Below, in pieces: positions 20,903 to 42,388 of a stretch of 64,000 nt of DNA (position 1 is its first letter; each line of letters starts with the position of its first letter). The stretch comes from Planotetraspora sp. A-T 1434 (GTDB taxonomy: Bacteria > Actinomycetota > Actinomycetes > Streptosporangiales > Streptosporangiaceae), in NCBI RefSeq assembly GCF_025420585.1, contig NZ_JAOEGB010000003.1:62001-126000 (forward strand), in the 5' to 3' direction. The notes under the pieces were generated by a model. That model saw only the letters and a program-made list of their open reading frames with translations, was not told the origin of the DNA and ran no database searches. A program made the translations under genes and the position numbers.

Positions 20903-21607
20903 TCATCGTGCGCGGGTGGTGAGACCCCGGATGGTCAGGTCGACCAGCTGGCGGAGACGGGTGTGCAGAACCTCCGGGGCGGCCTGCTCCTGCGCGATGC
21001 CGGTCAGCGCGTCGACCAGCAGCACAGCGGCGTCGTGCGCCGACAGCGCGACGTCGAGCAGGTCGAGCTCGCCGGCGGCGGAGGTGAGGATCTTCTCCAC
21101 GATGGCGGTGTGCCGCTCCTTGAACGCGGCCGTGAGCTCCGGCGCGACCACGCCGGCCTCCGCGAGCATCTCCCCCCGGAACTCGGCCTCGACCGTCCCG
21201 ACGAAGAAGTCCAGTTTCACCGCGAGCGCGCCATAGAGCCGCGCCGCCACCGTGCCGCCCACCGTGCCGCCCACCGTGCCGCCCACCGTGCCGCCCACCG
21301 TGCCGCCCACCGTGCCGCCCACCGTGCCGCCCACCGTGCCGCCCACCGTGCCGCCCACTGTGCCACCCGCTGTGCCACCCACACGACCGGCCGCTTCGGC
21401 GGCGGCGAGCAGCCCGTCGAGCATCCAGGCGCCCATCGCCCGGAAGAGGTCGTCCTTGCCGCTGAAGTGCTGGTAGAGCGCCGGCCGCGAGACGCCGGCG
21501 GCCCGCGCGACCAGATCCATGGAGGTCCTGCGATAGCCGTACCGGCCGAAAACCCCGACCGCGGCGCTCAGGATCTGGTCACGCTTGGCATCCCTGGCGG
21601 CTGACAT
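20903..21607 (-). CDS. TetR/AcrR family regulator with expanded GGTV repeat
   Basis: This 234-residue regulator has a normal TetR helix-turn-helix at residues about 8-55, with RDQILSAAVGVFGRYGYRRT, LVARAAGVSRPALYQHF and SGKDDLFRAM. The C-terminal ligand-binding helices run from ARLYGALAVKLDFFVG to the end. Between the two lies a run of eleven GGT(V/A) units encoded by 12-bp tandem DNA repeats, about 44 residues that normal TetR proteins lack. It probably controls itself and the small membrane protein gene that overlaps its stop. An inverted repeat over its own start codon is the likely operator. Confidence 0.9.
   Translation of the reverse strand: MSAARDAKRDQILSAAVGVFGRYGYRRTSMDLVARAAGVSRPALYQHFSGKDDLFRAMGAWMLDGLLAAAEAAGRVGGTAGGTVGGTVGGTVGGTVGGTVGGTVGGTVGGTVGGTVGGTVAARLYGALAVKLDFFVGTVEAEFRGEMLAEAGVVAPELTAAFKERHTAIVEKILTSAAGELDLLDVALSAHDAAVLLVDALTGIAQEQAAPEVLHTRLRQLVDLTIRGLTTRAR
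21252..21383. repeat. 12-bp tandem repeat (11 units) inside TetR gene
   Basis: Eleven 12-bp units run from 21252 to 21383. The first eight are identical (GTGCCGCCCACC), and the last three carry one to three substitutions (GTGCCGCCCACT, GTGCCACCCGCT, GTGCCACCCACA). On the coding strand each unit encodes Gly-Gly-Thr-Val. The divergence at one end and identity at the other suggest recent copy-number expansion by slippage. Confidence 0.95.
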
Positions 21608-21709: not shown

Positions 21710-23101
21710 TCAGTCCGTACGGGCGCATTGGGCGGACGGGGTGAAGAGCCAGCAGCCTCTGAGGTCCTGGGCCGCCCTGCCGGTGGTCGCGCCGGAGACG
21801 AGCGGCGCGATTCCGGCGCGTTTGCTGACCGGCGGAGCGAACGCCCAGCTCGGCGCGGCGGGTGAGGCTACCGGAGCGAGGGGCGCCAGCGGCCGTCCGA
21901 AGAGGTCGGTCGTCCGTCCCCGCCAGGGCGCGAGGCTCCAGGTCGAGATGGCCGATCGGGCCAGCGGCGGCAGAGGCAGCACACCGTGCGGGGCGCCGCC
22001 CGGGAGGATCCCCGGAACGTCGCCGGGCACACCGCCGTAGCCCCCGCTGGGCGCGCCTCCGTAGCCCCCGCTGGGCACGCCGCCGTAAATCCCGTTCGGC
22101 ACGCCTCCGTAGATCCCGTTCGGGACACCGCCTGCGGTGCCACCCGGGAGACCGTTGGGCGCGCCACCGTAGATGCCGTTAGGCGCGCCGCTCGGAAGGC
22201 CGAAGGTCGGCGAGGGCAGGACGGTCGGGGACGCCACGGCAGTCGGCGTGACCACCGCTGACGGCGTCGCCGTGGGGCTGGAACCGGCCGCGGGCGGCTC
22301 CGGGTCCTTGCCGCCCTTCGGGGTGTCCGGCTTCTTGCCGGGATCCTTGGCGGTCGGCTTCGACGTCGGTTCGGACGACGGTTTCGATGTCGGCTTGGAC
22401 GTCGGCTTGGACGTCGGCTTGGACGTCGGCTTGGACGTCGGCTTCGATGTCGGTTTCGATGTCGGTTTCGAGGAGTGCTTCGGGGTGGGGGACGGGCTGG
22501 GCGACGCGGTCGGCGTGGCCGTATCAGTCGGTGTGGCGGTCGGTGTGGCGGTGGGGGTGGCGGTGGGGGTGGCCGAGGCGCTCGGAGTGTCGGTGTCGGT
22601 CGGCTTGGCGGAGTGCGTCGGCTGCGGCGTCGACGTGTCCGGGTCCGCTGATTTCGCCGCCGGCGGCTCCGAATGAGGTGGCTGAGAGGCGGGCGGATCG
22701 GAGTGTTGGGGCGCCGCCGACGACGTCGGCCCGGATGTGTGGGAGGGGCTGTCGGTCGGCCTGTCCGTGGGCCCGTCCCCCGGCCTGCCGGAAGCGTCCG
22801 TGCCGGCCGAGGAGCCCGGGTCCGGACGGGACGAGGCGTCACTGTTCTGGGACGCCTCCGGCTCGTGGCCCGTGGGGCCGGTCGTGGCGGCGGGGCCGTC
22901 GCCGGGCGGGTCGAGGGTCACGGTGGCGGTGGGCTCGGGCGCCCCAGGGGCGACGTCGTCCCTGGGCGGGGGGACATCCACGCTGGGGTCCGCCATGGCG
23001 GCCCAGGGCTGGGCGATGATCGCACCGGTCGTCGCGGACACCGCGGCCAGGAGGAGACCGGAGACGAGGGTGGCGCGCCGGGAGGAGATGCGTGGGGTCA
23101 T
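21710..23101 (-). CDS. Secreted Pro/Thr/Ser- and Gly-rich repeat protein
   Basis: The 463-residue protein starts with a signal peptide (RRATLVSGLLLAAVSATTGA, with cleavage expected after AMA). A Pro/Asp/Ser-rich stalk follows. Then come TATPT repeats, about ten KPTS-type tetrapeptides (coded around 22352-22476), and a Gly-rich block of repeated GG-x-PNGIYGG and PSGGYGG units coded around 22030-22190. The C-terminal 110 residues are less repetitive, and two Cys (DLRGCWLF and SAQCARTD) close to the end could form a disulfide. Such a stalk is typical of wall-spanning or glycosylated surface proteins. It is the last gene of the four-gene operon; no known family is recognised. Confidence 0.8.
   Translation of the reverse strand: MTPRISSRRATLVSGLLLAAVSATTGAIIAQPWAAMADPSVDVPPPRDDVAPGAPEPTATVTLDPPGDGPAATTGPTGHEPEASQNSDASSRPDPGSSAGTDASGRPGDGPTDRPTDSPSHTSGPTSSAAPQHSDPPASQPPHSEPPAAKSADPDTSTPQPTHSAKPTDTDTPSASATPTATPTATPTATPTDTATPTASPSPSPTPKHSSKPTSKPTSKPTSKPTSKPTSKPTSKPTSKPSSEPTSKPTAKDPGKKPDTPKGGKDPEPPAAGSSPTATPSAVVTPTAVASPTVLPSPTFGLPSGAPNGIYGGAPNGLPGGTAGGVPNGIYGGVPNGIYGGVPSGGYGGAPSGGYGGVPGDVPGILPGGAPHGVLPLPPLARSAISTWSLAPWRGRTTDLFGRPLAPLAPVASPAAPSWAFAPPVSKRAGIAPLVSGATTGRAAQDLRGCWLFTPSAQCARTD
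22352..22476. repeat. 12-bp tandem repeats encoding KPTS
   Basis: Units of the form GTCGGCTTGGAC/GTCGGCTTCGAT recur in 12-bp phase through this interval, and the central copies are nearly identical. On the coding strand they give Ser-Lys-Pro-Thr. Confidence 0.85.
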
Positions 23102-23113
23102 GGATGGCTCTTC

Positions 23114-23147
23114 CTCGATCTATGGGCTGGCTCGATCTATGGGGTGG
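23114..23147. repeat. 17-bp direct repeat pair between two operon genes
   Basis: CTCGATCTATGGGCTGG (23114-23130) is followed at once by CTCGATCTATGGGGTGG (23131-23147), 16 of 17 bases identical. The TAG stop of the upstream membrane protein gene lies in the second copy. This is probably a tandem duplication. Confidence 0.7.
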
Positions 23148-23892
23148 GCCGTGGACCGGTGAGGGGCTTCCAGCCCGCCGCGGCGAACTGGGGCGTTCCG
23201 GGGAGAGCGGCGGCGGGCACGGCGGGAGGCGTGGGATCGGGGATGTTGACCCAGTCCCCCTGGTTCGTGCCACGCATGTGGGGGAGCCACTTCATGAGGA
23301 GGCTCATGGCGTAGGGGCTGGAGTAGACGGGGCCGGTGTCCGTGGTCCCCTTCGTCGCGGTCACCTGCACGAGGACGCACACCTGGACCTGGTCCTCGGC
23401 TCGGGCCTGCCACTGGACGCCGATCGTCTGCGTCCGCAGGGCCGCCCCCTCAGGCAGATCGCCCTCCGAGGGGAGGCCCAGGGTTTCCCGCCATCCGCGT
23501 ACGGCGGCGCGTGCTCCGTTGCGGGCGGCCTCCCGCTGCTCGGGCGGCGCGTAGAGGACGGCCGCCTGCTCGGCCTGGGCGGCGTCCAGCGTCCAGGCGG
23601 CCTCCAAGGCGGCCGCCGCCGCGGACACGGCTCCCAGCTCGGTGCGCGGAAACCCGATGGGATAACCGCCGTCGCCCTGGTGCCCGGTGGGCGGAGCCAG
23701 CGCGATGGCGTTCGCGACGCGGACGGGCGCGGGCGCCGGAGCCGGAGCGGGCCCCCGGAGTTGCACGACGATGACCACGATGGCGGCGACCACCGTCACG
23801 GCCGCGACCACGAAAAGCACCGTTACGCGGGGGCTCCGCCGTGGGGCGCTCAGGTCCCAGTCGAGCATCGGGTCCGGGGTGACCGTGCCCAC
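23137..23892 (-). CDS. Single-pass membrane protein of MinD/ParA operon
   Basis: The 251-residue protein has a cytosolic N-terminus of about 22 residues, a transmembrane helix VTVLFVVAAVTVVAAIVVIV and an alternating Pro-Ala linker. The outer domain of about 190 residues contains AVSAAAAALEAAWTLDAAQAE, YAPPEQREAARNGARAAV, QTIGVQWQARAEDQVQVCVL and GPVYSSPYAMSLLMKWLPHM. The topology (short tail, one helix, NTF2-like-sized outer domain) resembles accessory proteins of actinobacterial secretion or conjugation loci, without a firm family match. It starts with GTG overlapping the ATPase stop as TAGTG. Function unknown; physical coupling to the ATPase is inferred from gene overlap. Confidence 0.8.
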   Translation of the reverse strand: MGTVTPDPMLDWDLSAPRRSPRVTVLFVVAAVTVVAAIVVIVVQLRGPAPAPAPAPVRVANAIALAPPTGHQGDGGYPIGFPRTELGAVSAAAAALEAAWTLDAAQAEQAAVLYAPPEQREAARNGARAAVRGWRETLGLPSEGDLPEGAALRTQTIGVQWQARAEDQVQVCVLVQVTATKGTTDTGPVYSSPYAMSLLMKWLPHMRGTNQGDWVNIPDPTPPAVPAAALPGTPQFAAAGWKPLTGPRPTP

Positions 23893-24872
23893 TAGTTGCC
23901 CCGGTCGGGCCGCTGCCCGAACGCCTGTCCCGCGGCGGCGGCGAGGCGGAGGTACGCGCCACGGGTGGTAGGCCGCAGCCGGGAGAGATCGACCTCGGCG
24001 CCCTCCTTGAGATGCGGGTCGTACGGCACGCGGACGACGGCACGGCAGCGCGTCGCGAAATGCCGCTCCAGCAGCTCGACGTCGACGTGTGACTTGGGCT
24101 CCACGGCGTTCAGCACGACGATGGCGTTCTTGACGAGGCTTCCGTACCCGTGGGCTGTGAGCCAGTCCAGCGTGGCCGCGGCCGAGCTCGCGCCGTCGAC
24201 CGCGACCAGGCTTACCAGCACGATCTGGTCGGCCAGCTCCAGGGTCGCCCCCATGGCTCCGTGCAGCAGCCCTGTCCCGCAGTCGGTGATGCAGATCGAG
24301 TAGTAGCGCTCGATCAGTCCGGCGACCGTACGGTAGTCCTCCGCGTTGAACGCCTCGCTGACGGCCGGGTCGGTGTCGGAGGCCAGGACCTCCAGCCGGG
24401 CGGGCGACTGCGAGGTGAAGGCACGGGCGTCGGCATAGCGGACGATGTGGGGCGCTTCGGCGAGCAGCGTGCGGATGGTCGCGGCCGTTTCGGACTTGAC
24501 CTTGATGCCGAGAGTCCCCCGGTCAGGATTGGCGTCGATCGCGATCACCCGGTCTCCCCGAAGGGAGGCGAGCGTGTTGCCGAGGGCGGCGGTCGTCGTG
24601 GTCTTGCCCACACCGCCCTTGAGGCTCATGACGGCGATGCGGTGGTGGCCACTCGCCACGGGCGTCTGCGCCTGGGCGATCAGCGTGCGGCGCTCCAACT
24701 CGGCGGACGACTCCGCGGGGATGATCTTCCCCCCGGAGAGCTGGTAGACGAGCCGCCTCCACCCGCCCGCCGGCTCCGCACGCCGGTTGATGAGCAGATG
24801 CTCCGCCGTGAGGGGCACCGACTCGGGGAACTGGTCGGCCGGAACGGACACTGGAGAGTGGATCTCTGTCAT
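23892..24872 (-). CDS. MinD/ParA-like P-loop ATPase (EspI-like)
   Basis: The 326-residue ATPase has GGWRRLVYQLSGGKI near residue 37, then the deviant Walker A loop SLKGGVGKTTTTAALG near 84. Next are VIAIDANPDRGTLG with Walker A' and the switch region, ITDCGTGLLHGAM, and VLNAVEPKSHVDVELLERHF. The N-terminal WRR segment plus this P-loop form is typical of the MinD/ParA-like proteins associated with actinobacterial type VII secretion (EspI type). No core type VII gene is in the window, however. The start is placed at ATG 24872; an ATG at 24908 would add twelve residues. It likely couples ATP-driven positioning or regulation to the membrane proteins encoded on either side. Confidence 0.88.
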   Translation of the reverse strand: MTEIHSPVSVPADQFPESVPLTAEHLLINRRAEPAGGWRRLVYQLSGGKIIPAESSAELERRTLIAQAQTPVASGHHRIAVMSLKGGVGKTTTTAALGNTLASLRGDRVIAIDANPDRGTLGIKVKSETAATIRTLLAEAPHIVRYADARAFTSQSPARLEVLASDTDPAVSEAFNAEDYRTVAGLIERYYSICITDCGTGLLHGAMGATLELADQIVLVSLVAVDGASSAAATLDWLTAHGYGSLVKNAIVVLNAVEPKSHVDVELLERHFATRCRAVVRVPYDPHLKEGAEVDLSRLRPTTRGAYLRLAAAAGQAFGQRPDRGN

Positions 24873-24914
24873 GGCGAGGGGGGTCCTTTCACAGAGCACG
24901 GATGACATGGGCTG

Positions 24915-26684
24915 TCAGCAGGTGCGCCACCGCACCGTCGTGGTGCTCTCGCCGCGGGGTCCGCGCAGGACCAACGGAGTCGTGACGGGGGCGGGCACGC
25001 CGCACCAGTAGCGCACCCGGAGGGCGCGCACGCTGATCACGTCGGTGTGTCCGGGCTTCAGGGTGCCGCTGGACGGCTTGATGGCCAGACCGTGGGCCGT
25101 TATCCGCCACTCCAGGGGCTTGTCGGCCGCCGTCAGCGTGATGCTGCCCCGGCCGAAGTCGTCGAGCGTGACGACCGTCGGCACCTGTACGCCGCCGACG
25201 ACCTGGCTCTGCGGAGTGGGGCCGCCGCCCTGCACGGGCACGCTGGGCTGCGCGGTCACGCTCGCCCGGCCCGGAATGGCGGTCTGCCCAGGAATGGCGG
25301 CCTGGGTGACGGAGGACTCAAGAGAGCGCGCGGGCTCCCGTGTCTGTGCGGCCGGGCTCAGGAGGTTGATCCCCGCCAGTGTGCCCGCCGCGCCCGCGAC
25401 GACCACGATGACGATCCTGAGGGTGGTGGTGCGGATCAGCGCACCGGCCCTTGTGAACACCTCCGCGATCCGGACCGTGACCCCGATGCGGTGCAGACCG
25501 GACCTGTCGCCGAAGTTCCCCACGTCACCGAAGTGCCCATCGCGGACGTCGCGGTCACCGAGCTGCGTCGCCTCGGCGGCGTCAACCCCGCGGGCGAGGG
25601 CCTCACGCGCGTAGATCTGGGACATCAGCGCGTCATAGAGCGGGGTGTCGCGCCCCGAGGCAGCCGGCGGATCCGCCGGGTGCACCGGACCCTCCCCCGG
25701 CCTCGCTCTGCGCGGCCCCTCCGGAGCACTAACCGGACGCGGCCTCTCGGGAGGGCTTGCCGTACGAGCGCGGTCTGTGGGAGGCGGCGCGGAGGCGGGG
25801 GGCGGCGCGGGCCGCGCGGAGGCGGGAGGCGGTGTGACCACTCCCGAGGGCGGCGGCTTCGGCTTGGTCTCCTCGGGCGCGACCAAGCCGGCGTCGACCG
25901 GGGCGGAGAGCGGCATGCCGAACGACGACGGGGGCCGCTGGACGCGCGCCGGGACCGTGCCAACGTCGGGGAGCGAATCGAGGAGACGCCGCCTGACCTC
26001 GGGCGCCAGGGCGGCGATCGGGGGATGGGAGAGGATCTGCGGCACCGTGTAGCGGATGTTGATGGGCCGGTTGCACACGACGCACTTGACGATGTGAGAG
26101 AGCAGGGCCACCCGGGCGGCGCCAGAGTCGCCCGCGGCCCGCCCTCCGGGCTCGTCAGGGAACAGGTCGGACACCAACGGCACGAGGTCGGGACAGATGG
26201 GACGGCCGCGGGCGATGCCGTCCAGTCCGCTGACGAGGATCTCCACCACGTCCTGCGTACGCGTGACCAGCCTGCCGAGCTCGCGCACGGGCAGGGACAG
26301 GACATACGACAGATCCCGCAGCGGTAACTCGTGGCGGTACAGCAGGCGCAGCGTTTCGGCGCCGAGCGGATCGACGAGCGTCCAGGCGCGCCACACCGCG
26401 CCGCCGTCGGGGGCGCCGGGTCCCGGACCGGGCCGGTACCCCTCCCGGCCGCCGGAGCCGCAGGCGCGCCGCAGCACGGCCAGCAGCCACGCCCGGTCCG
26501 TCACGTGCGCGGGCGGAGCTTGGACGCTGCAGGCGCCCAGGGCGGCGCTGACCGCCGCGAGCATGCGGGCGCCGTCAAGGTGGTAGGAGGCGTAGTCCAC
26601 CAGATGAGCGCCGTGTTCGTTCACCCAGGCCATCCCCCGGCCGGGGTCGAGCGCGATGTCCCCCGTACCGGTGGGCGCGCTCAT
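24915..26684 (-). CDS. Membrane protein with sigma-4-like helix, ZAS-like zinc motif and outer domain
   Basis: The 589-residue protein seems to combine parts usually found on separate proteins. Residues about 95-155 (RAWTLVDPLGAETLRLLYRH, ELPLRDLSYVLSLPVRELGR) resemble the region-4 helix-turn-helix of ECF sigma factors. Residues 197-204 read H-I-V-K-C-V-V-C, the H-x3-C-x2-C pattern of zinc-binding anti-sigma domains. A Pro-rich disordered linker (about 245-345) follows. One membrane helix (about 421-443, LRIVIVVVAGAAGTLAGINL) leads to an outer domain of about 145 residues with two Cys and an Ig-like strand pattern. It is first in the operon, 42 bases before the ATPase gene. Signal transduction across the membrane is inferred, not shown. 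Confidence 0.78.
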   Translation of the reverse strand: MSAPTGTGDIALDPGRGMAWVNEHGAHLVDYASYHLDGARMLAAVSAALGACSVQAPPAHVTDRAWLLAVLRRACGSGGREGYRPGPGPGAPDGGAVWRAWTLVDPLGAETLRLLYRHELPLRDLSYVLSLPVRELGRLVTRTQDVVEILVSGLDGIARGRPICPDLVPLVSDLFPDEPGGRAAGDSGAARVALLSHIVKCVVCNRPINIRYTVPQILSHPPIAALAPEVRRRLLDSLPDVGTVPARVQRPPSSFGMPLSAPVDAGLVAPEETKPKPPPSGVVTPPPASARPAPPPASAPPPTDRARTASPPERPRPVSAPEGPRRARPGEGPVHPADPPAASGRDTPLYDALMSQIYAREALARGVDAAEATQLGDRDVRDGHFGDVGNFGDRSGLHRIGVTVRIAEVFTRAGALIRTTTLRIVIVVVAGAAGTLAGINLLSPAAQTREPARSLESSVTQAAIPGQTAIPGRASVTAQPSVPVQGGGPTPQSQVVGGVQVPTVVTLDDFGRGSITLTAADKPLEWRITAHGLAIKPSSGTLKPGHTDVISVRALRVRYWCGVPAPVTTPLVLRGPRGESTTTVRWRTC

Positions 26685-35989: not shown

Positions 35990-36019
35990 CAGCCGCTTCA
36001 CAAACGGGAGCGCACGCAG

Positions 36020-36112
36020 CGGAGGCGGACGGGAATCGAACCCGCCAGGCCGAGGACCTCGGCCTCGTTGGTTTTGAAGACCACGGGGGCCACCAGGCGC
36101 CCAGACGCCTCC
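36020..36112 (-). tRNA. selC: tRNA-Sec (anticodon UCA)
   Basis: Read on the minus strand from 36112, GGAGGCG pairs with CGCCTCC at the 3' end to form the acceptor stem. A D-arm, an anticodon arm with loop CTTCAAA (anticodon TCA), a long variable arm (GAGGCCGAG/CTCGGCCT) and a T-arm with TTCGATT between GCGGG and CCCGT follow. The size (93 nt), the long extra arm and the UCA anticodon identify it as selenocysteine tRNA. CCA is not encoded. It lies between the nucleotidyltransferase gene and selD, transcribed against both. Confidence 0.95.
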
Positions 36113-38427: not shown

Positions 38428-39219
38428 TCACCGCCTTCTCAGGAAGGACGCCTGCAAGAAGGGCACCCTTGGGAACGACACCCTCAGGAACGACACCGCC
38501 ACCGCACCGGCCAGCGTGAGGGCCGCGCCGCCGGCCCATCGCCACATGTCGGGCAGGTCGCGGGTGGTGACGACCGGGTCGGGCGGCAAGCCGTACGTCT
38601 CGGGCTCGTCGAGGAGCAGGAAGAACGCGCCGTCGCCGCCCACGCCGTCGTCGGGGCTCTCGCCGTACAGCCGGGCCTCGAGCACACCGTCCGCGTGCAG
38701 CCGCTCGACCCGTGCCTCCGCCCGCTCCCGGAGCTCGTCCAGCGGGCCGAACTGGATCGAGTCGGTCGGGCAGGCCTTCGCGCAGGCGGGCTCCATCCCA
38801 CCGCGCAGGCGGTCGTAGCACATCGTGCACTTCCAGGCCCGGCCGTCGCGCTCTCGACGGTCGATGACGCCGTAGGGGCAGGCCGGGACGCAGTAGCCGC
38901 AGCCGTTGCAGATGTCCGGCTGGACGACGACCGTGTCGAACTCCGTGCGGAACAGCGCGCCCGTCGGACACACGTCGAGGCAGGCGGCCTGCGTGCAGTG
39001 CTTGCACACGTCGGACGACATCAGCCACCTGCCGTCCTGCTCGATGAAGGCGACGTGCCGCCAGGTGTCCGCGCCGAGACTTCCGGTGTTGTCGTAGGAG
39101 GTCGCCCGGAAGACGAACCCGTCGTCGGGCACGTCGTTCCACTCCTTGCACGCGACCTCGCAGGCCTTGCAGCCGATGCACACGCTCGTGTCGGTGAAGA
39201 AGCCCATCCGCTCAGCCAT
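38428..39219 (-). CDS. Formate dehydrogenase iron-sulfur subunit
   Basis: The 263-residue protein has four ferredoxin-type cysteine groups: SVCIGCKACEVACKEWNDVP, VCKHCTQAACLDVCPTGAL, ICNGCGYCVPACPYGVI and KCTMCYDRLRGGMEPACAKACPTD. It ends in one membrane helix (WAGGAALTLAGAVAVSFL). This is the FdnH/FdoH pattern: four [4Fe-4S] clusters passing electrons from the catalytic to the membrane subunit. It overlaps the catalytic subunit gene by eight bases and precedes the NrfD-like gene. Confidence 0.94.
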   Translation of the reverse strand: MAERMGFFTDTSVCIGCKACEVACKEWNDVPDDGFVFRATSYDNTGSLGADTWRHVAFIEQDGRWLMSSDVCKHCTQAACLDVCPTGALFRTEFDTVVVQPDICNGCGYCVPACPYGVIDRRERDGRAWKCTMCYDRLRGGMEPACAKACPTDSIQFGPLDELRERAEARVERLHADGVLEARLYGESPDDGVGGDGAFFLLLDEPETYGLPPDPVVTTRDLPDMWRWAGGAALTLAGAVAVSFLRVSFPRVPFLQASFLRRR

Positions 39220-42200
39220 GGCGGTACCTCTCGATCAGGTCGAGCAGCGCCCTGCCGTGGGGCCGCCTGCCCGGCAGAATGTCGCACGTGCCGGCCTTGC
39301 TCTCCTGGATGAAGACGTTCGGGTCGAGCACGATCGGCATCAGGTCGTTGGGCACGTCGCCGGTGACCATTCCCCCGCCGCCGTAGCCCCAGTGGTACGG
39401 CACGCCGATCTGGTGCACGACTTTGCCCGCGATCCGGAGCGGCCTGACTCTCTCAGTGACCAGGACGCGCAGCTCGATCGCCGTCCGCGCCGTCACGATC
39501 GTCGCCCAGCCGCCGTTGACCAGCCCGACCTCGGCGGCGAGCCGCGGCGACACCTCGCAGAACGGCGCGGGCTGGAGCTCGGCGAGGTACGGCAGGGGCC
39601 GGCTCATCCCCCCGGCGGTGTGGTGCTCGGTGAGCCGGTAGGTCGTGAAGACGTACGGGAACCGCGACGACATCGGAGGGTTGTACGGGTTCTCCGGGCG
39701 GTCGAGGATCCGTCGTGCCGGGTTGGCCCGCTGGCCGTACAACGTGTTGGGCACCGGCGACTCGTGCGGCTCGTAGTGCGCCGGGAGCGGCCCGTCGGAC
39801 AGCCCGGACGGGACGAACAGCCAGCCCTTGCCGTCCGACTGCATGATGAACGGGTCGGTCCCGGCGAGCGCCGCCTCCGCCCTGGCCCCCTCGGGCGGCC
39901 GGTAGTCCGGCGGCATGTGCTCATCGAAGTCCGGAATGTCGAGCCCGGTCCACAGGCCCTTGTCCGCGTCCCACCAGACGTACGCCTTGCGCTCGCTCCA
40001 CGGGCGGCCGTCCGGGTCGGCCGAGGCGCGGTTGTAGAGGATGCGCCGGTTGGCGGGCCACGCCCAGCCCCACTCGGGCGCGATCCAGGACTGCTCGCTC
40101 CCCGGTCTGCGCCGGGCCGCCTGGTTGACCTCGCCGGCGTAGACCCCGCAGTAGATCCAGCAGCCGCAGGTCGTGGACCCGTCGGGCTTGAGCTGCCTCA
40201 GGGACGACAGCGCCCGCCCGTCGGGGCCGGTGCCGTTGATCTCCCGGAGCACGGCCGCCGCCGAAGGCTCCCGGTGCTCTCCTTCTTCGGGATAGTCCCA
40301 GGTCAGCTCCATCACCGGCCGGTCGATCCGGTCGCCGCCGAGCCGCTGCCTGATCAGCTTGCCGAGGTGGTAGTAGAACCACAGGTCGCTGCGGCAGTCG
40401 CCCGGCGGGTCGAGCGCCTTCTCGCGCCACTGGAGCAGCCGCTGGGTGTTGGTGAAGGTGCCCTCCTTCTCCACGTGGCTCGCGGCGGGCATGAAGAAGA
40501 CCTCGGTGCCGATGTCCTCGGTGCGCAGCTCGCCCGTTTCGAGCTCGGGGGCGTCCTTCCAGAACGTGGCCGTCTCGACCAGAGTGAGATCGCGGACGAC
40601 CAGCCAGTCGAGGTTGGCCAGCCCGAGGCGCTGCGCCTTGCCGTTGGCCGAGCCGACCGCCGGGTTCTCGCCCACCACGAAGTAGCCCTTGACGGTGCCG
40701 TCGATCTGGCCCATCACCGTGGCGTAGTGGCTGTGGTCGCCGGTGAGCCGGGGCAGGTAGCCGAAGCAGAAGTCGTTGTCCTCCGTGGCCGCGTCGCCCC
40801 ACCAGGCCTTGAGCAGGCTGACCAGGTAGGACCGCCGGTTGCCCCAGTAGCCTGTGTCGGCGCCCTCCTGCTCCAGGTAGTGGTCAAGGCCGTCGTGCCG
40901 GAGCGCGTGGGGCATCGCGATGTATCCCGGGAGCAGGTTGAACAGCGTCGGGATGTCCGTGGATCCCTGGATGCTGGCGTGGCCGCGCAGCGCCATGATC
41001 CCGCCGCCGGGGCGCCCCATGTTGCCCAGCAGGAGCTGCAGGATCGAGGCCGCCCGGATGTACTGCACGCCGACCGAGTGCTGGGTCCAGCCGACCGAGT
41101 AGACCCAGGCGGTCGTCCGCTCGCGCCCCGAGTTGGCGGTGATCGCCTCGGCCAGCTCGGCGAACTCCTCCTCGGAGATCCCGCACAGCTCGGCGACCCG
41201 CTCGGGCGTGTAGCGCGCGAAGTGCCGCTTCAGGATCTGGTAGACGCAGCGCGGGTGGCGCAGCGTCGGATCGGCGGGCGGCTGCGCGGACGCGCCGGCC
41301 CCGCGCGCGCCGTAGGAGTCCGACCCGGCGGCCTCGGCGTGGCGTATGCCGCCCTCTCGCGGCTCGCCCTCCCCCGGCTCGTCGCCCTCGTAGGACCAGC
41401 TCGCCGGGTCGTACCTCCGCGTCTCCGGGTCGAAGCCGGAGAACAGGCCGTCCAGGTCCTCGGTGTCCCGGTATCGCGCCGAGATGATCGTGGCCGCGTT
41501 CGTGTAGGCCAGCACGTACTCACGGAAGTCCAGCTCGTTAGCGAGGACATGGTTGATCAGCGCGCCGAGCAGGACGATGTCCGTACCGGCGCGGATCGGC
41601 AGGTAGCGGTCCACGGTCGCGCTCGTGCGCGTGAAGTGCGGGTCGATGTGGAAGACCTTCGCGCCCCGGTCGCGGGCCTCCATCACCCACTGGTAGCCCA
41701 CGGGATGGCATTCGGCCATGTTTGAGCCCTGGATGACGATGCAGTCAGAGGTCGCCAGATCCTGCTGGAAGCCCGTCGCGCCGCCACGCCCGAAGCTGGT
41801 CCCCAGACCGGGGACGGTGGAGGAGTGTCAAATACGGGCCTGGTTCTCGACCTGGATCGCGCCGAGGGCGGTGTACAGCTTCTTCATCAGGTAGTTCTCT
41901 TCGTTGTCGAGCGTCGCCCCGCCCAGACTGGCGATGCCCAGAGTCCGCCGCACCTCCTTGCCGTCGTGCGTCTGCTGCCAGGTCTCCCGCCGGGTACGGA
42001 CGACCCGGTCGGCGATCATGTCCATGGCGGTCTCGAGGTCGAGCCGCTGCCAGTGCGTGCCGTACGGCCGGCGGTAGAGGACGTGGGTCTGGCGGCCCGG
42101 ATGGGTGACGAGTTGCTTGCTGGCCGACCCCTTCGGACAGAGCCGCCCCCGCGAGATCGGCGAGTCGGGATCACCCTCGATCTGGCTGACCTTGCCGTCC

Positions 42201-42388
42201 TTGACGTACACGAGCTGGCCGCAGCCGACCGCGCAGTAGGGGCAGACGGACCGTGCGACGCTGTCGGCCTCCTCGACACGGGGCCGCAGGACGTCGGTCC
42301 GCGCCGAGCGCGCGGCCTCCCGCCTGCCGTCCTCCCCCTTGAGCTGCCGGATCACCGGCCACCGGGAGAGCCACCCACCATCTGCCAC
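39212..42388 (-). CDS. Formate dehydrogenase catalytic subunit, selenoprotein (Sec at UGA 41830-41828)
   Basis: One 1,058-residue selenoprotein is encoded across an in-frame UGA. The first part (residues 1-186) has the [4Fe-4S] motif CPYCAVGC with C49, C52 and C56, plus RGRLCPKG (C84), and ends ENQARI. UGA is codon 187. The frame then continues HSSTVPGLGTSFGRGGATG, the exact context after the Sec or Cys of molybdenum formate dehydrogenases, and runs on through AECHPVGYQWVMEARDRGAK to the C-terminal cofactor domain. A SECIS hairpin follows the UGA. It starts at GTG 42388 with GGAGG upstream. No Tat signal is obvious, so the enzyme probably faces the cytosol. It oxidises formate to CO2. Confidence 0.95.
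41799..41830 (-). promoter_or_regulatory. Bacterial SECIS element and Sec UGA codon
   Basis: On the coding strand UGA (41830-41828) is followed after 12 bases by the hairpin GUCCCC-GGUCU-GGGGAC (41815-41799). The loop GGUCU is the one recognised by E. coli SelB in fdhF. It begins 18 bases after the UGA, the same distance as in fdhF. This marks the UGA as selenocysteine, not a stop. Confidence 0.92.

What the first reader, a model, noticed from the sequence alone, without database searches (positions are those of the whole stretch)
21710..26684. Four-gene envelope signalling operon: sigma-like/anti-sigma-like membrane protein, MinD/ParA ATPase, one-pass protein, secreted repeat protein
The four genes run in one direction with at most about 42 bases between them and one TAGTG overlap. 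An EspI-type ATPase outside any visible type VII locus, placed between two single-pass membrane proteins and a wall-length secreted stalk, points to a membrane-spanning machine or signalling device. I know no described system with this composition.
Basis: partly seen in the sequence, partly recalled or inferred. Interest (0 to 1): 0.75.

Follow-up and report, generated by a model that had tools for sequence, protein, structure and literature searches.

The report
Conserved MinD–VirB8-like envelope operon
Four neighbouring genes, kept together in every relative where they were found in one family of soil bacteria, appear to build a small protein complex across the cell envelope from parts otherwise seen in two secretion systems and in membrane-bound gene regulators; nobody seems to have studied it.

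Summary
The four genes are real, under purifying selection, and always together. All 32 loci found by searching for gene C, in about eight Streptosporangiaceae genera, carry A-B-C-D in this order, and none has an ESX or T4SS core gene in the DNA examined. The one-base B/C overlap is kept in 31 of 32. Many relatives add two upstream genes (X1, X2) and a downstream GH16 gene.
A: a degenerate ECF-sigma/zinc anti-sigma fusion with one TM helix and an extracytoplasmic Ig-like domain.
B: an intact EspI-type MinD/ParA ATPase, 48–49% identical to ATPases inside ESX loci and 36–42% to ones inside T4SS loci.
C, the main new point: predicted VirB8 fold, with sequence homologues at the VirB8 position of actinobacterial T4SS loci and in a Streptomyces chromosomal cluster matching cmdA-F, whose loss impairs sporulation.
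D: a secreted Pro/Ser/Thr-rich protein with a conserved Cys/Trp tail.
Its signalling reading is untested.
Best explanation: a non-translocating envelope complex, VirB8-like C plus wall parts, positioned or gated by B, with A as transmembrane read-out, probably developmental. Composition is well shown; mechanism is inferred. I found no described system of this make-up.

The parts
24915..26684 (-). gene A: degenerate ECF sigma / zinc anti-sigma fusion, Pro-rich linker, one TM helix, extracytoplasmic Ig-like domain
   Evidence: ORF; profile match (98.5%) to sigma70-zfHC2-TM paralogues, Pfam on the paralogues; fold
26205..26648 (-). A residues 13-160: sigma2/sigma4-like helices, degenerate (no Sigma70 Pfam match in 31 of 31 members)
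26073..26096 (-). A residues 197-204: H-x3-C-x2-C motif of zinc-binding anti-sigma type, H/C/C invariant in 31 sequences
25353..25448 (-). A residues 413-444: transmembrane helix
   Evidence: hydropathy; model
24918..25196 (-). A residues 497-589: PapD/MSP/ASH-type Ig-like domain, invariant C561 and C589
   Evidence: VIA Z 10-12 over 88-91 residues
23892..24908 (-). gene B: EspI-type MinD/ParA ATPase (likely start 24872, MTEIH)
   Evidence: CbiA E 3.4e-12; 83-91% identical between operons, 48-49% to ESX-embedded ATPases
24597..24620 (-). B deviant Walker A motif KGGVGKTT (residues 97-104)
   Evidence: sequence; intact in all operon copies aligned
23890..23894 (-). B stop / C start overlap TAGTG
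   Evidence: kept in 31 of 32 loci
23137..23892 (-). gene C: one-TM VirB8-like protein
23197..23649 (-). C residues 82-232: extracytoplasmic NTF2-like / VirB8-like domain
   Evidence: AF2 domain pLDDT mostly above 90; CagV Z 9.7, DotI 9.6, TcpC 9.2; homologues at the VirB8 position of T4SS loci
21710..23101 (-). gene D: secreted Pro/Ser/Thr-rich wall-zone protein
22991..23101 (-). D signal-peptide-like N terminus
   Evidence: conserved in 23 homologues; hydropathy
21719..21940 (-). D conserved C-terminal Cys/Trp module (WSLAPWRGRT ... WAFAPP ... GCW-F-P---CA)
   Evidence: C450 and C459 invariant; the window alone lacks both Cys of the upstream pair

Best explanation
The operon encodes a chromosomal, non-translocating trans-envelope complex of Streptosporangiaceae. 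C, a VirB8-like one-TM protein, oligomerises with its NTF2 domain in the wall zone. B, an EspI-type MinD/ParA ATPase made in translational coupling with C, dimerises on ATP at the inner membrane face and positions or gates the C assembly. D (elsewhere also X1, X2 and a GH16 glycosidase) builds or trims its wall-zone part. A, a tethered sigma/anti-sigma-derived protein with an outer Ig-like domain, reports assembly or an outside cue to the cytoplasm. Most likely role: aerial growth or sporulation. SHOWN: gene linkage, overlap of B and C, selection, B and C family links, absence of translocation motor genes at the locus. PREDICTED: folds, topology. INFERRED: translational coupling, C oligomers, B-C binding, positioning, A's read-out, developmental role.
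For: A-B-C-D syntenic in 32 of 32 loci with differing flanks; B/C overlap in 31 of 32; B strongest constrained with intact deviant Walker A. C has the VirB8 fold, and its homologues occupy the VirB8 slot of plasmid T4SS loci and of a Streptomyces chromosomal cluster. B-type ATPases lie inside ESX and T4SS loci. No EccA/B/C/D, MycP, WXG100, VirB4, VirD4, VirB6 or SCO6880 match in any of the 32 loci or the window, controls positive. ParA/MinD ATPases position envelope machines including conjugation machinery (PMC10241942); Gram-positive VirB8-like proteins form trimers in the wall zone (PMC11753425). Development by analogy: cmdA-F loss impairs sporulation without affecting plasmid transfer (PMC2782261).
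Against: No interaction, localisation, expression or phenotype data. The cmd analogy rests on one homologous component plus gene order matching the published cluster, not on the S. coelicolor sequence itself. Many NTF2 proteins score Z about 8, so the fold alone is not specific. A's sigma-like domain could still be an active sigma factor. Translocation motors could act from elsewhere in the genome.
Confidence: 0.42

Rival explanations
1. Membrane-bound sigma pathway: A is an active ECF52/53-like sigma factor released by proteolysis when its outer domain senses a wall signal; B, C and D form its sensor.
For: Same layout as ECF52 SCO4117 (sigma, zinc finger, TM, Pro-rich stretch, outer domain), which controls sporulation, and for which release by proteolysis is proposed (PMC5826349, PMC8999054); paralogues of A in the same genome have recognisable sigma2, sigma4 and zf-HC2.
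Against: No Sigma70 Pfam match in any of 31 A proteins; the first sigma2 helix and the sigma2-sigma4 linker are missing; neither the A nor the A11 profile matches the likely SCO4117 orthologue in L144.
Confidence: 0.22
2. Accessory to a translocation system encoded elsewhere: the operon docks to a T4SS (own genome C45: TcpC, TcpE-MinD fusion, VirB4, TrbL) or an ESX system and adapts it to the envelope.
For: B and C are homologues of ESX and T4SS parts; the own genome has a chromosomal T4SS-like locus (L008).
Against: 32 of 32 loci lack motor genes; EccB not found in the own genome, though that search had no positive control; the C45 locus already has its own TcpC and MinD domain.
Confidence: 0.15
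3. Wall or surface-polysaccharide assembly module: B-C organise a site where D, X2 and the GH16 enzyme remodel wall glycan.
For: Same-strand GH16 gene just after D in 12 of 32 loci; D and X2 are secreted and Cys-containing.
Against: GH16 is absent next to D in the window and in Microbispora; no glycan synthesis gene is conserved with the operon.
Confidence: 0.12

Closest known systems
EspI (ESX-1/ESX-2/plasmid ESX peripheral ATPase)
   Same: B is 48-49% identical over the ATPase part to MinD/ParA proteins inside ESX loci, with a shared lead-in before the P-loop; EspI lowers ESX-1 secretion at low ATP (cited in PMC11302016)
   Different: no ESX core gene nearby; B lacks the long N-terminal disordered region; B is encoded with a VirB8-like protein
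VirB8 / TcpC family of type IV secretion
   Same: one TM then NTF2-like domain; C's sequence homologues lie between a small membrane protein and a VirB6-like gene in T4SS loci
   Different: one NTF2 domain here (TcpC has two); no VirB4, VirD4 or VirB6 at the locus
cmdABCDEF of Streptomyces coelicolor (SCO4126-4131)
   Same: chromosomal T4SS-like membrane cluster with developmental role; clusters of matching gene order carry a C homologue
   Different: those clusters keep VirB4-, VirB6- and SCO6880-like genes; no A, B or D equivalents seen in them
ECF52/ECF53 membrane-tethered sigma factors (SCO4117)
   Same: sigma-zinc finger-TM-outer domain order with Pro-rich stretches
   Different: A's sigma part is not recognised by Sigma70 models; outer domain is PapD/ASH-like, not a carbohydrate-binding module; A's long Pro-rich stretch precedes the TM helix

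Membership tests
Type VII (ESX) secretion system | EccB/C/D, MycP, WXG100 genes at the locus | tested here: not met
   no match in the window or 32 loci; control loci L126 and L131 rang
Type VII (ESX) secretion system | EspI-type ATPase | tested here: met
   48% to the ATPase between mycP and eccD; 49% to a Streptomyces ATPase beside EccB and EccE
Type IV secretion system | VirB4/VirD4 motor ATPases and VirB6 channel gene at the locus | tested here: not met
   controls L085, L087, L089, L129, L008 positive
VirB8-like protein | N-terminal TM plus NTF2-like domain | tested here: met
   predicted structure (top Z 9.7-8.4, mostly VirB8); hydropathy
VirB8-like protein | homology to proteins at the VirB8 position of T4SS loci | tested here: met
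   (E 1e-10 to 1e-30)
VirB8-like protein | oligomer in the envelope | not testable with these tools
   needs biochemistry
ParA/MinD ATPases | deviant Walker A KGGVGKT and CbiA/AAA_31 domain | tested here: met
ECF52/ECF53 sigma factors | recognisable sigma2 and sigma4 domains | tested here: not met
   no Sigma70 match in 31 members; one search shows only derivation from sigma paralogues
ECF52/ECF53 sigma factors | zinc anti-sigma motif and TM helix on the same chain | tested here: met
cmd cluster | CmdB-like (VirB4-type) ATPase | tested here: inconclusive
   no VirB4-type match, but the query set held no cmd sequence itself

The most novel reading that the evidence does not exclude
A new class of envelope machine, neither T4SS nor T7SS: an EspI-type ATPase driving a VirB8-like trans-wall assembly without any translocation motor, coupled to a pseudo-sigma/anti-sigma membrane receptor, with a role in actinobacterial development.
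Probability: 0.33. Interest if true: 0.82.

Novelty: new variant of a known kind. Interest (0 to 1): 0.62.

Why it matters
It would show that the VirB8 and EspI/MinD parts of secretion machines can be recruited into a motor-free complex, a step beyond the published cmd cluster of Streptomyces, which is T4SS-like yet serves development rather than plasmid transfer. It would also give a testable case of an 'orphan' ParA/MinD ATPase with a likely cargo encoded next to it, and of a sigma/anti-sigma fusion that may have become a structural or signalling receptor.

Tried and rejected
C as a TcpC relative by sequence: hhalign of C against the own-genome TcpC found nothing; the link is by fold and by T4SS homologues. 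X1 and C as one family: only the TM aligns. Direct PDB sequence match for C: none convincing. Remnant of X1/X2 upstream of A in the window: weak X1 hit only, E 0.013, and no match in the own genome. A as an orthologue of SCO4117: not supported. B tree: operon copies form one group, but ESX and T4SS branches are long and unresolved. Foldseek matches of A's Ig domain to chaperones and cilia proteins are fold-level only. A's N-terminal domain was not folded or searched alone, so its sigma link rests on profiles. EccB search of the own genome had no positive control, so ESX absence there is not shown. Two A searches by family failed on the server.

Full report
OBSERVATION. Four minus-strand ORFs lie at 26684-21710: A 589 aa, B 338 aa, C 251 aa, D 463 aa. 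B and C overlap in TAGTG; C to D is 35 bases. Upstream lies a divergent photolyase, downstream a TetR gene.

CONSERVATION. All 32 carry A-B-C-D in order. In 31 the C start shares the last base of the B stop. Flanking genes differ between genera. Outside Microbispora, Sphaerimonospora and the window, all but one short contig carry X2 directly upstream, and most X1 before it; in 18 of 20 the X2 stop overlaps the A start by four bases. Twelve have a same-strand GH16 gene after D. X1 and X2 have no match elsewhere in the window's genome. In samples of 395 and 297 genomes of the class, strong C and strong A matches occur only in this family.

SELECTION. Over six pairs dN/dS is 0-0.08 for B, 0.21-0.32 for C, 0.34-0.48 for A and 0.40-0.70 for D. 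The cytoplasmic ATPase is the fixed core; the secreted protein varies fastest.

GENE B. CbiA/MinD-type. Operon copies are 83-91% identical to the window's, with intact KGGVGKTT, and form one group; two stand-alone own-genome paralogues are 63-66% identical. ATPases inside ESX loci are 48-49% identical (M. arabiense plasmid, between mycP and eccD; a Streptomyces locus with EccB and EccE). Those inside T4SS loci are 36-42% (R. fascians, Clavibacter, own-genome TcpE fusion). So 'EspI-type' is right.

GENE C. Pfam has no family for it. The model has one TM helix, three helices and a four-stranded sheet, domain pLDDT mostly above 90. The best structural matches are CagV, DotI, TcpC and other VirB8 proteins, Z 9.7-8.4; unrelated NTF2 proteins follow near 8, so fold alone is not decisive. 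Independent sequence evidence: homologues (E 1e-10 to 1e-30) lie between a small membrane protein and a VirB6-like gene, followed by SCO6880, VirB4 and VirD4 genes, on Streptomyces and Streptosporangium plasmids and in a Streptomyces chromosomal cluster. By gene order that cluster matches cmdA-F (SCO4126-4131), whose deletion impairs sporulation but not plasmid transfer (PMC2782261). I did not compare the S. coelicolor sequence itself. In a tree, operon C proteins group apart from plasmid and cmd-like ones, with moderate support.

GENE A. Residues 13-245 match own-family paralogues that have sigma2, sigma4 and zf-HC2 (98.5%; Pfam). The H-x3-C-x2-C motif is invariant. No A protein matches a Sigma70 model, and the first sigma2 helix is missing, so the sigma part is degenerate. 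The outer domain is PapD/ASH-like. The layout resembles ECF52 SCO4117, a sporulation regulator (PMC5826349, PMC8999054), but membership is not supported.

GENE D. Signal, about 330-residue Pro/Ser/Thr-rich linker, and a Cys/Trp C-terminal module. Of the 23 homologues aligned only the window lacks both cysteines of the first pair, as expected if they form a disulphide.

NOT ESX, NOT T4SS. Queries for EccA, B, C, D, MycP, WXG100, VirB4, VirB6, VirD4, SCO6880, TcpC and TcpE found nothing in the 32 loci or the window; control loci rang.

MECHANISM. ParA/MinD ATPases position cargoes including conjugation machinery (PMC10241942). Gram-positive VirB8-like proteins form trimers in the wall zone (PMC11753425). 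I infer that B positions or gates a C-based assembly, with D in the wall and A as read-out. The composition is well shown; every interaction is inferred.

NOVELTY. Parts are known; the combination is not in the literature I could search, which is open-access only.

Noticed in passing
39212-42388 (-) and 36019-36112 (-): Formate dehydrogenase alpha subunit with an in-frame TGA (NQARIUHSSTV) and a tRNA-Sec gene nearby: a selenoprotein locus.
   Followed up: partly
21239-21382: Twelve copies of a 12-base tandem repeat inside the TetR ORF 20903-21607, encoding GGTV repeats.
   Followed up: no
L008 (G000:C45:159000-178000): Chromosomal T4SS-like locus with TcpC, a TcpE protein fused to a MinD-type domain with altered Walker A (TGGAGQTT), VirB4 and TrbL.
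   Followed up: partly
L123 7185-8861 and L146 3059-5128 (own genome C104 and C61): Two further sigma/zinc-finger/TM proteins related to A; the C61 one sits beside a coiled-coil protein resembling the one next to the related gene in L125.
   Followed up: partly
L144 387-2339: Likely SCO4117 (ECF52) orthologue about 20 kb from the cmd-like cluster in a Streptomyces genome.
   Followed up: no
L128 7001-10367: A Pseudonocardia plasmid MinD/ParA gene also has a GH16 gene nearby, as after D in 12 operon loci.
   Followed up: no
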